A DNA stretch of 64,000 nt, taken from positions 478,147-542,146 of the forward strand of contig NZ_JACHNU010000002.1 in assembly GCF_014199525.1 (NCBI RefSeq), in the 5' to 3' direction. How positions within the stretch are numbered: the stretch's first letter is position 1; the number at the start of each line of letters is the position of its first letter. This DNA comes from Conexibacter arvalis. Lineage in GTDB: Bacteria > Actinomycetota > Thermoleophilia > Solirubrobacterales > Solirubrobacteraceae. The notes under the pieces are model-generated. The model saw nothing but the letters and a program-made list of their open reading frames with translations. It was not told where the DNA came from and did not search any database. Positions 29,713 through 35,620 of this stretch are shown piece after piece. A program made the translations under genes and the position numbers.

Positions 29713-32616
29713 TCAGCGCGCGCTGCGCGCCGCGCCGCGCTTCTTGGCGGCGCGCTTGGCGCCTCTGCCTCTCTTCGCCTTCGCCGACTGTCTGGCGCTC
29801 TTGCAGCCGGCGACCTTCATCCGCTGGTTGACGTTGACCCGCTTGCCGCTCTGCGCGCGGAAGGCCAATCTCGCGACGGAGGCCTTGCGCACTCTCGCGG
29901 TGCAGAAGTTGCCGATCGCGCCGACCGCGCCCCGCTTGCCGGCCACGAGCGACAGCTTGAAGCTCGTGATCGGGACGTCCGGGATCGTGTCGAAGGCGGT
30001 CCGCAGCGTCAGGTTGCGGTTGATCGTGATCTTCCCGGTCACGTCGACCGCGACCAGCGACGCCGTCCCCTGACCTCTCAGCCGGACGACCATGTCCGGC
30101 AGTCTGCGGGCCGGGTTGCGGACGAGGTAGATCGGGCCGGTCAGCGGCTCCTGCAGGAGCGGCGTGACGGCGGTCGCCGAGCCGATGCTCTGCGGGCATC
30201 TGTCGGCGATGAACTGCTCCATCGTGCACGCCTTGTCGTTGTTGATGACTTCGAGGCGCGCGTTGACCGTCCGCGGCAGGTCGACCCGAACGAGCCGGTT
30301 GTTGGCCTGGCCGGGGGTCATCTTCAGCGTCGCGGTCAGCGGCATCGTCAACCCGTTGCGCGGTGACCGTCTGGCGTTGCCCGCCGTCAGCGTCAGCTTC
30401 GGCTTGAACGGCAGCGCGGCGCAGTCGGCCACCTGGAAGCGCGCCGAGCGCGCGACCTCGGTGCCGGTCTGCGAGCCGATCACGCCGTCGACCGAGGCGC
30501 GCGAGCAGTTGGTCGGGTTGACCATGAACTGGTCGCGATCCATCGTCACGTTGAGCGTCCGCAGGTTCAGCGGCACGCCCTCGAGGATCGTCGGCATCGG
30601 GTCGGAGGCGATCGTCAGCGACGTGTCGTTGCGGTCGATCGCCACCGCCGCGCGCACCACGACGGTGCCGAGGTCGAACGGCCCGGCGATCGCCGGCACG
30701 ACGATCGAGAGGCTGTACGGCGCGCCCTTGTACGGGCCGCCCATGTAGACGCGGCCGCCGAGGTGGTACGGCGAGGCGCCGGCGCCCGCGCCGACCGTTA
30801 CCGACCCGACCCGCGACTGCTCGCCGCAGGCGCCGTTGGCGGCGGCGGAGTCGTCGCACAGCGGCACGTCGCCGACGCGCGCGAGCAAGCCCTTGGGCAT
30901 CTCGACGCGCAGCGTGCGCAGCACCTGCGGCCCGCCGGCCCGCCGCAGCGTCAGCGAGAAGGCGCCCGACTTGCCCGCGACCGCGTTCTGCACGCCGGCG
31001 CTGAACGACGGCGCGAAGACGTCAGGACCGCAGCCCTCGATGTTGAACGTCGAGCTCGAGCTCACGACGGCACCGGTGTGGGCCGTGATCTCGGTCGTGG
31101 TCGTCTTCGGCCCGCACGTGGCCGGGTTGACGAGCGGCGCGCGGTCGCCGCCGCGCAGAGACATCCGAAGGTTGCTGAACGGCAGCTGCGGGTTGTTGTC
31201 GAAGATCGCCGTGATCTGCCCCGTCTGCGGATCGCGCAGCACGGTGCCCGGCAGCTTGATGACGATGCCGGAGCCGCGCGCCTCGATCAGCAGCCGGAAG
31301 AGGTTCCCCGGCTGCGGCGAGCGCAGGAAGACGTCGCCGACGAGCGGATTGGGGAGCAGCGGCGTGTCGATCGCGACCGAGCCGATCTTCGACGTCTCGG
31401 GGCAGACCGCGGCCTCAGCCGTGCCGAGCTTCGTCGCCGCGTCCGAGCAGCCGTCCAGACCCCACGCCGACGGCGGCGAGATCGCGACGCCCTCCGGCAG
31501 TCTGACCTGGACCTTTCTGACCGTCGGCGACGACAGCCCGTCCGGATCGTCGTTCTGCTTGACCTTCAGGTCGATGTCGAACCCGGCAGGCTCGTCAGGC
31601 CGCCCATGCTGCGGCTTGAGCTGCAGCCCGGCCTCGAATCTCAGCGCCTCGCAGCCGGTCGGCTGCGGCACCGGAGCCGAAGCCGTGACCCATCTGTCCT
31701 GGTCATACCAAGAACGAGCTCTCAACTCGGAGCGGAGCGACCCGTTACAGGCCGACGGCGCCGTCAGGAATGGGCGGCGCGGGTGAGGGTTCGTCGCTCC
31801 GGGCGCGCCGTTCGCGTCGAGGCGTTCGTAGTCATGCACCGGATCGGCGGGCACGCCCCAAAGGGTGAGCATAACGCCGCCGATGTCGGCGAAGCCTGTC
31901 GCGTTTCTGACCACCGCCCGGATGCCATAGTCGCTTTCACCACGCACACCGACGCGGATCTCCGTGATCGCATTGAAGACCTTGAACGCGAACGCCGCGG
32001 CATGGTTTCTGTCCGGCACGATGCTGAACACGGGGATCGGCGTCCACCCGTCGTAAGGGCCGTTCGCGGTACCGCTGCTGAGAACCCAAGCGATGCCAAC
32101 CTGCGTGTCGGGTGGGCAGCCGTACCCATAGGGCACCTCGTCGTACAGCGTGCCTCGCGGGCACTGAGGCAAGACCTGCGGGTTGCCATAGAAGCCGACC
32201 GGGAGATCGAGCGTCATGTCTTTCATCGACGCGACGATCTCTCTCCCCTCGCGTGTCACCGTGCGGTCGAACGAGAAGAAGGTGGTCAAGTCGGGATGGG
32301 CCCCGGCCTGCGTCGCAGGCGTCAGCGCCGGCGGAGGCGGCAGTGGATCGCCGTTCATCATCGCGTTGAACCAGTCCTCCAGATACGGCGCCGGTGCGTG
32401 AAGCGTGGTCGAGAACGACTCCACGCCGAACTCGGCCTGCGCCGGCTGGGCCGCGACCAGCGCAGCGAGTGCCGCAAACGCTGCGACGAGCCACCGCACC
32501 GCTCGCCCACGTCCTTCGCGGGCCGATGTCCCGCTCGCCGCCATGCCCCTCGTCTCCTCGTCTCGTGCCGTGATCCGCGGCGATGTCCGCATCGACTGTC
32601 CGGCGAACGTCATCAT
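29713..32616 (-). CDS. Large exported protein with repeated Cys-bracketed modules and basic C-terminal tail
   Basis: 967 residues from the first ATG, which overlaps the upstream gene's stop (ATGATGA) and has AAGGGGG at good spacing. A second ATG at 32544 gives 943 residues with a more usual signal peptide (WLVAAFAALAALVAAQPAQA). No family is recognised. The mature part has three related modules of about 130-190 residues. Each begins with a Cys and an IGS-type motif (CPETSKIGSVAIDTPLLPNP, CGEQSRVGSVTVG, CPQSIGSATAVTPLLQEPLT), continues with beta-rich sequence (VFLRSPQPG, VYMGGPYKG, IYLVRNPAR) and ends near a conserved NPATC/NPTNC-type Cys. The last 30 residues are almost all Lys, Arg and Ala. 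Probably a cell-surface protein. AGA codons abound and the 5' third is lower in GC. Confidence 0.8.
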   Translation of the reverse strand: MMTFAGQSMRTSPRITARDEETRGMAASGTSAREGRGRAVRWLVAAFAALAALVAAQPAQAEFGVESFSTTLHAPAPYLEDWFNAMMNGDPLPPPPALTPATQAGAHPDLTTFFSFDRTVTREGREIVASMKDMTLDLPVGFYGNPQVLPQCPRGTLYDEVPYGYGCPPDTQVGIAWVLSSGTANGPYDGWTPIPVFSIVPDRNHAAAFAFKVFNAITEIRVGVRGESDYGIRAVVRNATGFADIGGVMLTLWGVPADPVHDYERLDANGAPGATNPHPRRPFLTAPSACNGSLRSELRARSWYDQDRWVTASAPVPQPTGCEALRFEAGLQLKPQHGRPDEPAGFDIDLKVKQNDDPDGLSSPTVRKVQVRLPEGVAISPPSAWGLDGCSDAATKLGTAEAAVCPETSKIGSVAIDTPLLPNPLVGDVFLRSPQPGNLFRLLIEARGSGIVIKLPGTVLRDPQTGQITAIFDNNPQLPFSNLRMSLRGGDRAPLVNPATCGPKTTTTEITAHTGAVVSSSSTFNIEGCGPDVFAPSFSAGVQNAVAGKSGAFSLTLRRAGGPQVLRTLRVEMPKGLLARVGDVPLCDDSAAANGACGEQSRVGSVTVGAGAGASPYHLGGRVYMGGPYKGAPYSLSIVVPAIAGPFDLGTVVVRAAVAIDRNDTSLTIASDPMPTILEGVPLNLRTLNVTMDRDQFMVNPTNCSRASVDGVIGSQTGTEVARSARFQVADCAALPFKPKLTLTAGNARRSPRNGLTMPLTATLKMTPGQANNRLVRVDLPRTVNARLEVINNDKACTMEQFIADRCPQSIGSATAVTPLLQEPLTGPIYLVRNPARRLPDMVVRLRGQGTASLVAVDVTGKITINRNLTLRTAFDTIPDVPITSFKLSLVAGKRGAVGAIGNFCTARVRKASVARLAFRAQSGKRVNVNQRMKVAGCKSARQSAKAKRGRGAKRAAKKRGAARSAR

Positions 32617-34832
32617 CGTGCCCCCTTCGCTCTGGATGACAGACGCAGAACGAAGCCTCGGGACACCGTGCCAGTGGTGCGCGACGATCTCGCCTCGATG
32701 CGGACTCGCAGCGCGCCGGCCGAAGCCAATGCTCTCCGCGCCCGCCGCGTGAGCGCAACCCGGACCTTCGCGGTACCAGCCTTGTTCAACGCCTTAGCGG
32801 CGCGCGCACTCCTGACCCAGCGACCGCCCATGCGGACACGCAACGTGACGTTGACCTTGGCCTTCGTCGTCGTGCGGACGCGGACCACCGTCGCGCCGGT
32901 GCGCGCGAACCGCTTGCGCGCCGCGGTGCCGATCGGCTGCAGCCGCAGCGACGGGAGCGCGATCGCGGGCTCGTCGACATTGCCAACTCCGTCCAGCAAC
33001 TCGCTGGCCGGTGTGGCGAAGTCCGGCACCGGCGCGGGCAGCACGCACGCAGTGCCTCTGCACGGGATCACCGGATCTTCTGGCAGCGGCGGAAAGCCGC
33101 CACCGCGGCGCGCAGTGTAGACGTCGTTCAGATCGTCAATGTCGTCATCGGCGAGCTGCTCGCGCGTGACGAAGAAGACGTCGATGCCGTCGTCGGAGCT
33201 GTCGCCGTAATGGCTGTTGACGGATCCGCGGCCGGACGAGATCAGGAGCGGCTCGTGACCGTCGAAGGCGTACACGTCGCGCACGCCGTTGACATCCGCC
33301 TCCACGAGCCGGTCCGCGGTCGTGAAGTAGACCTCGCCGTCATCGCTGAGGTTCCGGCCGACGATGCCGATGTTGAGCAGCGTGTCGGTCTCCGCCGCCG
33401 ATCCGTCGGGGCGGCAAGAGGCGCAGAGCAGCTCGCCCTCCTGGGCGTCGTACCGGTAGACGACGCGATTGCCTCCCGTCAGCGCTCCGTTGACGGATGC
33501 AGCCGTCTCGAACAGCGCGAAGCGCCCGTCGCGCCCAACGCGCTCGATTCTCGGCGCGCCGCCGCCGAAGGCTGCGACCAGTCTGGTGCCACCCGTCTCG
33601 CTCCAGACGTAGCCGTTGAAGGTGCCAGCGTCGGCGGTCAATCTCTGGTTGGAGACGAAGTACACATGGGTGCCGTCGCCCGAGATCATCGCGCTGGAGA
33701 TTGCGACGTTGGTGCCGCCGATCGACGCCGAGGTGACCTGGCTGAGTCTTCCGTCGGCGAAGGTGTAGCGATAGATGCCGCCACCTTGTGTCGCGTCGTC
33801 GGCGAGCATCTCGGTGCTGCTGAAGTAGACGGCGCTCCCATCCGGTTTGGCGCCGAGGAACCGCGTGGCGGTCGGGTGCGTGCCGGCCGGCGTGCCGCCG
33901 GACGCGGACCGCTGCGACGTCGTGTAGGCGATGGTCGTGTTCCCGTCGATGCGCGCGAACAGTCTGCCGAGCTGGGTCGGAAGCGCCGTCGCCTGCCAGA
34001 AGACGACCGAGCCGTCGTCGGAGACGTTGTGCATCCCGCCGTGGGGAAGGCGGACCTCGAAGGTCTGGACGGATGACATCGACGTGCGCTGGTCACTCTG
34101 CTGCGTCGCGGCGGGGGCGACCGGATCGTCATCCGAGTTGCGCGAGACGAGCGTGATGGCGCCGTCACGCCACTGATAGACCCCACCGTTGGTCGGAGCG
34201 TCTGGCGTGAGCGGATCAGCCTGTCGGAACGTGATGACGCTGAGATCGTTCGTAACGCCCGCCATGTATGGCTTGCTGCCGGCAGCGTCGTGTCCTGACT
34301 CCGCTGCGCTCACGAGCCGCGCCTCACCGGAGGAGATGTCGAGCAGGTAGAGATCCTGCTCCTCGTCCTCGTCGCGCTCCTCGAGCGCGTACGGCGTCTT
34401 CACGAGCGCAGTCGCCCCGTCGGACGACGTAGCGAGGACGACAGCCTCCTTGTTGGAATCGAGCCCCGACACGATGCGGGTCTTGGGCGTGACAGCGTCG
34501 TTCCACCAATGCGTCGCCGTACGCGACGCGCGGAGCGGCGTCCGCACGCCGAAGCTGTGCTGGCCTTCTACGGCGCCGTAGAGCGTGTAGTTGATGCTGC
34601 CGCCGTCGTCGGCGACCGCGAAGATGTCCTGCGCTGCCGAGGTGCCCTTCTGTGCCGGCGAGACACGCTCGTAGACTCGTCCGTCCGATCCGGGCTCCGC
34701 GGCGACGGCTCCCGTAGCGAGCGCCGAGGCGACGCCTGTGGCGAGCAGCGCCGAGCGCGCCGCCCTGACGGCAGCCGCCCGTGCGCCCGGCGCAGCGGGC
34801 ACTGGCCGAACTGACGACCATCGTTCGTCCAT
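32613..34832 (-). CDS. Exported beta-propeller-like (WD40/PD40-type repeat) protein
   Basis: 739 residues from the ATG at 34832, chosen because AAAGAGGAGAG lies at ideal spacing; the frame stays open upstream. The N-terminus has an Ala-rich export signal (ARSALLATGVASALATGAVA). The body repeats blade-like units of the TolB/PD40 type: a DDG or DG turn followed by aromatic strands (SDDGSVVFWQATALP, PDGSAVYFSSTEML, GDGTHVYFVSNQRL, DDGEVYFTTADRL, DDGIDVFFVTREQL). It ends in a basic Ig-like tail (VRVRTTTKAKVNVTLRVRMG, SSRAKGAR) like other large exported proteins of this lineage. Ligand unknown. It is coupled to the next exported protein by an ATGATGA overlap, so the two may work together on the surface. 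GC content is below that of flanking housekeeping genes. Confidence 0.82.
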   Translation of the reverse strand: MDERWSSVRPVPAAPGARAAAVRAARSALLATGVASALATGAVAAEPGSDGRVYERVSPAQKGTSAAQDIFAVADDGGSINYTLYGAVEGQHSFGVRTPLRASRTATHWWNDAVTPKTRIVSGLDSNKEAVVLATSSDGATALVKTPYALEERDEDEEQDLYLLDISSGEARLVSAAESGHDAAGSKPYMAGVTNDLSVITFRQADPLTPDAPTNGGVYQWRDGAITLVSRNSDDDPVAPAATQQSDQRTSMSSVQTFEVRLPHGGMHNVSDDGSVVFWQATALPTQLGRLFARIDGNTTIAYTTSQRSASGGTPAGTHPTATRFLGAKPDGSAVYFSSTEMLADDATQGGGIYRYTFADGRLSQVTSASIGGTNVAISSAMISGDGTHVYFVSNQRLTADAGTFNGYVWSETGGTRLVAAFGGGAPRIERVGRDGRFALFETAASVNGALTGGNRVVYRYDAQEGELLCASCRPDGSAAETDTLLNIGIVGRNLSDDGEVYFTTADRLVEADVNGVRDVYAFDGHEPLLISSGRGSVNSHYGDSSDDGIDVFFVTREQLADDDIDDLNDVYTARRGGGFPPLPEDPVIPCRGTACVLPAPVPDFATPASELLDGVGNVDEPAIALPSLRLQPIGTAARKRFARTGATVVRVRTTTKAKVNVTLRVRMGGRWVRSARAAKALNKAGTAKVRVALTRRARRALASAGALRVRIEARSSRTTGTVSRGFVLRLSSRAKGAR

Positions 34833-35010
34833 CTCTCCTCTTTCCTCGTGCGACCGAATGGCGCCACAGGGTCGTGCGACCTTCCCCTGGTGCCCCTCGC
34901 GCCAAGCGTAAACACACACGGCTCCAAAGTCCAACAGGGGTCCGTCAGGCCACGACGAGATTCGTCGCATCCCCCGAGCCCCGTTGGTCTCGATCCCGCC
35001 AGACACGCGC

Positions 35011-35035
35011 ACGGGGCGGCCGTCGGCCGCCCCGT
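35011..35035 (-). terminator. Inverted repeat downstream of the 179-residue secreted-protein gene
   Basis: ACGGGGCGGCC, GTC, GGCCGCCCCGT: an 11-base perfect stem 46 bases past the stop on the minus strand, separating this gene from the beta-propeller gene. Confidence 0.6.
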
Positions 35036-35080: not shown

Positions 35081-35620
35081 TCAGAGCTGGACCGGCACAC
35101 CGAACTGGTCGACGACGTTGTAGGTGCCCACGACGGGCTGGCTGCTGCCGCAGAGCGAGCTGCCCGCGGTACGCGTGAGCGAGCCGCTGAGGACGACGTC
35201 ACCCGACATCGGATCGTACAGCCCGCTGACCGCCCCCTCGAAGGTGCAGCTCAGGAGACCCCACCGGAGCGTGACGTTGATGTCCGAGAGCGTCATGTTG
35301 CCGGCACCGTCGATGTCGAGCGCCCACGGCAGGCCGTTCGCCGTCACGGTCGAGCTGCTGCCAAGCGTTCTGCAGCCGCTGAAGCTGGCCGCGGTGACGG
35401 GACCGCCGCCGCCGTTGCCGACGCCGTTGTCGTAGCCGACCACGCCGCTCACGGTGCTGCCGGTGCAGTGAGAGATCGAGCCGAGCTGGATCTGCGGCGA
35501 GACGAGCGTGCCTATGACCGGATCGCCGACGCTGATGCCGTCCAGCGCTGCAGCGTTGGCGGAGAACAGCATGACGCCAGCGGTGGCCGCCGCGAGGGCG
35601 GCGCCGAGGAACTTACGCAT
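35081..35620 (-). CDS. Small secreted protein, 179 aa, unknown function
   Basis: A clear Sec signal peptide (MRKFLGAALAAATAGVMLFS, cleaved after SANA or AAA) leads into a Gly/Ser/Thr-rich beta protein with four Cys (HCTGS, SGCRTLG, LLSCTFEG, SSLCGSS) that could form two disulfides. It ends FGVPVQL. No family is recognised, though the layout resembles small secreted proteins common in Thermoleophilia. AGGAG stands eight bases before the ATG. Upstream lie a perfect 20-base palindrome and a consensus-like promoter about 270 bases away, so expression is probably controlled. Confidence 0.78.
   Translation of the reverse strand: MRKFLGAALAAATAGVMLFSANAAALDGISVGDPVIGTLVSPQIQLGSISHCTGSTVSGVVGYDNGVGNGGGGPVTAASFSGCRTLGSSSTVTANGLPWALDIDGAGNMTLSDINVTLRWGLLSCTFEGAVSGLYDPMSGDVVLSGSLTRTAGSSLCGSSQPVVGTYNVVDQFGVPVQL

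What the first reader, a model, noticed from the sequence alone, without database searches (positions are those of the whole stretch)
29713..32616. Large exported protein built of repeated Cys-bracketed modules, with a polycationic tail
At least three modules share an IGS motif after a Cys, a beta-rich body with a (V/I)(F/Y)L-x-x-P turn, and a Cys near an NP(A/T)xC end. The protein ends with about 30 Lys/Arg/Ala residues. I know of no named family; the layout suggests a surface fibre or adhesin held to acidic wall polymers by its tail.
Basis: partly seen in the sequence, partly recalled or inferred. Interest (0 to 1): 0.65.

Follow-up and report, generated by a model that had tools for sequence, protein, structure and literature searches.

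The report
Four-module exported rod paired with propeller
A soil bacterium and its relatives make an unnamed family of exported proteins built from four copies of the same cysteine-containing module, often encoded right behind a propeller-shaped partner protein and kept in up to some thirty different copies per genome, which probably act as a repertoire of surface stalks and heads whose targets nobody knows.

Summary
The 967-aa protein Q has a signal peptide, FOUR (not three) homologous modules with four cysteines each (all 16 Cys used), and a +13 basic tail. Profile comparison joins all six module pairs (95.5-99.8%; shuffled controls at most 4.2%). AlphaFold2 gives a confident beta-rich model (pLDDT 88, pTM 0.77). 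No Pfam, NCBIfam or PDB sequence family matches it. Q is the second gene of a two-gene cassette. The gene before it, P, is an exported beta-propeller; stop and start overlap (ATGA). The window's genome has 10 P-Q pairs plus one lone Q. In 12 other genomes 58 of 58 strong P matches lie beside a Q, while 43 of 101 Q matches have no P; one genome has 30 pairs. Array length varies among relatives: M1-(M2M3)n-M4, n = 0, 1, 9, 11, 15. It is confined to Solirubrobacterales-type Actinomycetota as far as searched. Best reading: a surface head-and-stalk system, Q the disulfide-braced stalk, P the fast-diverging head. Binding, anchoring and P-Q contact are inferred, not shown.

The parts
29713..32616 (-). 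Q: exported four-module protein, 967 aa (start at 32616 overlaps the P stop; another ATG at residue 25)
32434..32544 (-). Q signal peptide, about residues 25-61, cleavage after AQA (read from sequence, no predictor run)
   Evidence: sequence; helix 38-54
31651..32421 (-). Q module M1 (residues 66-322), N-cap, least alike among own paralogues
31030..31650 (-). Q module M2 (residues 323-529)
30421..31029 (-). Q module M3 (residues 530-732); highest identity among own paralogues; fold match to YcnI
29803..30420 (-). Q module M4 (residues 733-938), C-cap
29716..29802 (-). Q polycationic tail (residues 939-967)
32613..32616 (-). ATGA overlap of P stop and Q start
32613..35012 (-). P: exported beta-propeller partner (probable start ATG at 34832, read from sequence)
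33087..34688 (-). P propeller domain (residues 109-642)
32973..33119 (-). P conserved motif after the propeller (family consensus YDARVGGGFP...CxGxxCQG; C651 and C656 invariant in 34 sequences)
32643..32948 (-). P C-terminal beta-sandwich domain (residues 689-790), related to the C-terminal domain of some Q relatives

Best explanation
Q is the stalk of an exported two-protein surface structure. Shown: Q and P carry export signals by sequence, Q has four homologous modules each with four conserved cysteines, P is predicted as a beta-propeller, the genes overlap and are conserved as a pair. Inferred: each module forms two disulfides; P and Q are made together, leave the cell separately and join outside; Q's M1 end, the most variable module, meets P; P's fast-changing propeller is the recognition head; M4 and the basic tail (or an Ig-type domain in other relatives) face the anionic wall or matrix. 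Ten different pairs per genome would give a repertoire of binding specificities, for cell-cell, surface or polymer attachment. Relatives without P use Q modules alone, some stretched to 20-32 modules.
For: Four modules and 4x4 Cys; 10 of 16 Cys invariant and 5 more at least 90% conserved in 52 sequences. Confident beta-rich model. Fold matches: YcnI for M3 (Z 10.6, rmsd 2.4, 117 aligned), then adhesin/pilin domains at Z 8.2 and below; Foldseek lists an adhesin extender repeat (6xi3, E 4.5e-07, but TM only 0.13/0.24). P model: propeller (Z 17.8 to CylK, rmsd 6.0, 300 aligned). Own genome: 10 P, each directly followed by a Q. Twelve other genomes: 58 of 58 strong P matches lie within 1 kb of a Q on the same strand, 57 as P then Q. 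34 of 49 pairs overlap as ATGA/GTGA, 3 more as TGATG (no chance control made). One clean single-polypeptide Q-P fusion with a Lys-rich joint (L108). P is less conserved than Q in 45 of 45 own comparisons and 1176 of 1176 overall; distance matrices correlate (r 0.52, 1 of 2000 permutations as high; r 0.68, 0 of 2000). Stalk-type additions elsewhere: DUF11 over its cut-off before Q in 2 of 8 extensions tested, fn3 before P in 2 of 2 and NHL in 1 of 2. M1-(M2M3)n-M4 lengths.
Against: No binding, localisation or P-Q contact was tested. 43 of 101 Q matches in 12 genomes lack P, and three genomes (G344, G322, G304; 26 Q matches) have Q but no strong P, so Q does not need this head everywhere; some gaps may be contig ends or pieces of one gene. 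No sortase-type motif in the last 50 residues of the 11 Q and 10 P of this genome, although it has two sortase matches. 11 of 45 complete paired Q lack a strongly basic tail. Matrix correlation is also expected if pairs merely duplicate together. YcnI, the top fold match, is a copper protein, not a stalk. A fast-diverging P could equally be under relaxed constraint.
Confidence: 0.5

Rival explanations
1. Wall or matrix building material: Q (and the giant versions) is a structural layer protein and P is its assembly or cross-linking partner; there is no specific recognition.
For: Q occurs without P (43 of 101 matches) and as 20-32-module giants with no P hit in the stretches read; basic tails; many copies.
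Against: Ten to thirty diverged copies per genome with P changing faster than Q fit recognition better than a uniform layer.
Confidence: 0.25
2. An exported enzyme or enzyme scaffold: P's propeller is catalytic or substrate-binding (as in CylK, DPPIV-type proteins) and Q is its stabilising scaffold or carbohydrate binder.
For: P's best fold matches are propellers of enzymes (CylK Z 17.8, DPPIV Z 15.4); PD40 matches in 21 of 34 P at E up to 0.1.
Against: Propellers match one another in general; the window P has a small beta-sandwich, not a hydrolase domain, behind the propeller; no convincing enzyme family for Q or P (one search has stray single-member hits such as phytase-like 0.016 and DPPIV_N 0.034); P diverges to 28% identity.
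Confidence: 0.15
3. Metal or small-molecule binding modules of the YcnI (DUF1775) kind repeated four times.
For: M3 superposes on YcnI, Z 10.4-10.6, rmsd 2.4-2.6, 117-118 of 128-129 residues.
Against: No DUF1775 match in 52 members at E up to 1; YcnI's copper site uses an N-terminal His with Glu and Trp (PMC8424229, passages); Q modules are internal and mature M1 would begin with Glu (read from sequence).
Confidence: 0.05

Closest known systems
Fibrillar adhesins of Gram-positive bacteria (PMC9210967, passages seen)
   Same: Large exported protein, tandem array of beta domains, candidate head, DUF11 domain in some relatives
   Different: Module family not in Pfam; candidate head encoded by a separate overlapping gene; no sortase motif in this genome's copies; four Cys per module
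Periscope proteins (PMC8201768, passages seen)
   Same: Number of stalk units varies among relatives
   Different: Units here are only 37-44% identical on average within giants, so not near-identical repeats; strain-level length change untested
YcnI / DUF1775 copper protein (PDB 7me6, 8um6)
   Same: Fold of module M3
   Different: No sequence match, no N-terminal His site, repeated in tandem with conserved cysteines
PD40/WD40-like propellers (Pfam PF07676), for P
   Same: 21 of 34 P relatives match at E up to 0.1 (best 7.1e-07); propeller fold
   Different: Window P is below the curated cut-off; carries a conserved C..C motif behind the propeller and a C-terminal sandwich; every strong match examined sits by Q

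Membership tests
Fibrillar adhesin-like protein | Exported, large, repeated stalk-like domains | tested here: met
   Signal peptide by sequence (no predictor run); four homologous modules; beta-rich model; that they form a rod was not tested
Fibrillar adhesin-like protein | Adhesive domain | tested here: inconclusive
   No known adhesive family in Q or P; P is only a candidate head
Fibrillar adhesin-like protein | Cell-surface anchor (sortase motif or other) | tested here: inconclusive
   No sortase-type motif in the last 50 residues of 11 Q and 10 P of this genome; basic tail instead
Fibrillar adhesin-like protein | Binds a target at a distance from the cell | not testable with these tools
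   Needs binding and imaging
Periscope protein | Highly identical tandem repeats | tested here: not met
   Mean unit identity 43.9, 39.5, 36.8% in three giants, maximum 67.3%
Periscope protein | Repeat number varies between strains of one species | not tested
   One genome per species held
DUF1775 (YcnI) | Match to the Pfam family | tested here: not met
   Not among the families matched by any of 52 members at E up to 1
DUF1775 (YcnI) | Fold | tested here: met
   M3 only, Z 10.6, rmsd 2.4, 117 aligned
DUF1775 (YcnI) | N-terminal His copper brace | tested here: not met
   Modules are internal; expected mature N-terminus is EFG (sequence); site described in PMC8424229 passages
PD40 propeller (for P) | Score over the curated cut-off | tested here: not met
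   14.8 bits against 20.9 for the window P; 21 of 34 relatives match at E up to 0.1

The most novel reading that the evidence does not exclude
A lineage-specific repertoire of two-protein surface receptors: each cassette pairs a variable propeller head (P) with a disulfide-braced rod (Q) whose head-near module varies and whose far end is kept alike by gene conversion, ten to thirty different cassettes per genome, used for recognition of kin, partners or polymers in soil.
Probability: 0.3. Interest if true: 0.8.

Novelty: new variant of a known kind. Interest (0 to 1): 0.62.

Why it matters
[quoted passage not shown] This family can fill tens of genes in one genome (33 Q and 30 P matches in a 3.3-Mb genome), yet nothing in Pfam or NCBIfam recognises it. 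It gives a new four-cysteine beta module with a clear cap-repeat-cap growth rule and a candidate head and stalk split over two overlapping genes, which makes surface recognition in this order testable.

Tried and rejected
Known families: nothing for Q in Pfam, NCBIfam or PDB sequences; weak hits of one or two members taken as chance. Whole-model Foldseek hits (CD109, integrins, complement, transglutaminases, adhesin extenders) reach E 1.6e-07 but TM 0.04-0.24 and rmsd above 16 in the 50 rows shown; the viral library likewise, best E 5.9e-10 (a DUF11 protein), TM at most 0.22: read as generic beta repeats. Copper binding as in YcnI: fold yes, site no. A third conserved gene: none in the window region and nine own loci; shared neighbours were ABC-type genes, and glycosyltransferase-like genes in two loci (names recalled). 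Shared promoter motif upstream of P: nothing clear; one 8-mer in 8 of 10 against 5-6 in five shuffles, nothing at 10 or 12. Plasmids and phages: no match. Viral contigs: 1 locus, three tandem Q beside an integrase-like and a tRNA-like stretch (labels recalled), read as host flank. P-Q fusion in L103: rejected, because the joint reads like an out-of-frame stretch. A listed Thermoleophilia-specific protein of 993 aa (PMC6544083, passages) might be a Q; a relative's frame offers starts for 994, 996 and 999 aa but not 993, so undecided. Literature: nine searches listed no title or abstract start naming this family; subscription papers are mostly not held.

Rows left out of counts: one search used 51 Q segments picked from the loci, shorter ones dropped; one search used 33 of 43 P segments (ten mostly long P dropped); one search used 49 pairs with long P and Q; one search also had a separate first piece of one P and three weak C-terminal-only matches (7.2e-5 to 0.11), two short weak ones (7.2e-6, 0.013), not counted as genes. 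One search used 101 of 117 Q matches (16 weaker pieces dropped; the 101 may still hold pieces of one gene) and 58 of 78 P matches (one second piece and 19 partial matches of 45-112 bits dropped; these look like other propellers and lie near no Q listed). Searches scored only 2-4 candidates per genome and up to 8, so their negatives are soft. One search counted tails of 49 Q; four are cut by contig ends, corrected.

Full report
WHAT IS THERE. The frame 29713-32616 (minus) encodes Q, 967 aa, with an export signal (AQA before EFG, read from the sequence), four modules and a basic tail. Sub-alignments of the four modules match each other with hhalign probabilities of 95.5 to 99.8%; 20 column-shuffled controls per pair never exceeded 4.2% and reversed controls 3.0%. 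Each module holds four cysteines, 16 of 16 in all. Ten are invariant in 52 sequences and five more are at least 90% conserved. AlphaFold2 on that alignment gives pLDDT 88.1 and pTM 0.77, with a recurring strand pattern.

FAMILY. Scans of Q and of all 52 alignment members gave no convincing Pfam or NCBIfam family; no PDB sequence matches. Module M3 superposes on YcnI (Z 10.6, rmsd 2.4, 117 residues), the next rows being adhesin and pilin domains at Z 8.2 and below. The tool warns that Z under 8 may be only a common arrangement. YcnI's copper site (N-terminal His, Glu, Trp; PMC8424229, passages) cannot form in internal modules.

PARTNER. P (32613-35012, minus) overlaps Q by ATGA. Its model is a beta-propeller plus a C-terminal sandwich (pLDDT 78.2, pTM 0.70; propeller matches led by CylK, Z 17.8, rmsd 6.0, 300 aligned). 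In the window's own genome there are 11 Q and 10 P genes, and each P is directly followed by a Q (a few short weak matches not counted); the eleventh Q, the most divergent, has no P found. In 12 further genomes, 58 of 58 strong P matches lie within 1 kb of a Q on the same strand, 57 in the order P-Q and one Q-P, whereas 43 of the 101 Q matches counted have no P. One genome of 3.3 Mb holds 33 Q and 30 P matches. Of 49 pairs, 34 overlap as ATGA or GTGA, 3 as TGATG, 10 have another start within 30 bases and 2 none (no chance control). A clean Q-P fusion of 2074 aa occurs in L108. No third gene is shared among the own loci.

EVOLUTION. P is less alike than Q in 45 of 45 own comparisons (28.8 against 45.8%) and 1176 of 1176 overall (27.5 against 40.5%); the distance matrices correlate, as both interaction and joint duplication would give. 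Among ten own paired paralogues M1 is least alike (33.1%) and M3 most (54.7%). The two tandem Q in L026 share M4 at 98.5% against a mean of 50.3%, read as gene conversion of the C-terminal end; this is one case. In a 49-row tree the ten own Q need four changes, so they are partly old lineages shared with other species and partly local duplicates.

ARCHITECTURE. Of 87 non-duplicate frames with modules that do not touch a locus end, 76 are M1-M2-M3-M4 (16 of them with an Ig-type domain behind, one, L108, with P), 3 are M1-M4 (two as split hits), 1 a giant, and 7 partial (4 M1, 2 M2-M3-M4, 1 M4-Ig) (grouping of split hits is mine). Giants are M1-(M2M3)9-M4 (4643 aa) and M1-(M2M3)11-M4 (5628 aa); a third, frame 7223 aa, shows M1 with 15 M2M3 pairs in L139 and 15 pairs with M4 in the joined stretch, whose first 157 or so residues were not fetched. 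So the caps stay and the inner pair is multiplied. Within giants the unit identity averages 37-44%. Of 8 extensions in front of Q that were scanned, 2 match DUF11 over its cut-off, 3 below it and 3 not at all; of 2 long P, both match fn3 and one NHL. DUF11 is given as an example of a stalk domain in PMC9210967 (passages).

DISTRIBUTION. 51 of 101 genomes of the same family by single-protein search. By profile 30 of 199 in the class, five of them only by short matches at E 1e-5 to 7e-4, two of these outside the order. In the phylum 4 of 296, counting the window's own genome and two weak ones, one of those outside the class. Few candidates were scored per genome. Of 55 named loci the titles are Conexibacter, Patulibacter, Solirubrobacter, Thermoleophilaceae and Solirubrobacterales or unplaced Actinobacteria MAGs, one 'bacterium' and one 'Chlamydiae' MAG. 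Two genomes of the window's genus are Conexibacter strains, since L033 and L062, and L034 and L073, share an identical 1,000-base stretch, so the window is probably Conexibacter. C. woesei is reported to form aggregates (PMC3035278, passages), which fits but does not test an adhesive role.

MECHANISM. Shown: export signals by sequence, modules, cysteine pattern, predicted propeller, neighbourhood of P to Q, variable array length. Inferred: disulfides, co-assembly, P as head, Q as stalk, charge-based anchoring by the tail, recognition. The weakest points are Q without P in several genomes (26 Q matches in three genomes), tails below net +8 in 11 of 45 complete paired Q, and the absence of any binding data. 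The structural-layer reading is the main rival.

Noticed in passing
   Followed up: partly
L026:7523-15976: Two tandem P-Q pairs whose Q share a nearly identical M4 (98.5%) and tail but only ordinary identity before it: likely gene conversion.
   Followed up: partly
L108 (Chlamydiae MAG contig, GC 0.66): Q-P fusion on a contig binned as Chlamydiae; its GC and this gene family suggest a misbinned Solirubrobacterales contig; other genes not looked at.
   Followed up: no
L145 (IMG/VR contig): Three tandem Q genes without P beside an integrase-like frame and a tRNA-like stretch; probably host DNA at a provirus edge.
   Followed up: partly
G382 (unnamed, 3.3 Mb): 33 Q and 30 P matches in one small genome, an unusual load for one surface family.
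   Followed up: partly
L029:5726-8728: Lone, divergent Q of the window's genome with a long C-terminal extension instead of a K/A tail and ABC-type genes (label recalled) next to it.
   Followed up: no
window 35081-35620 (-): Small frame with a signal-peptide-like start just upstream of P; not shared with other own loci.
   Followed up: no
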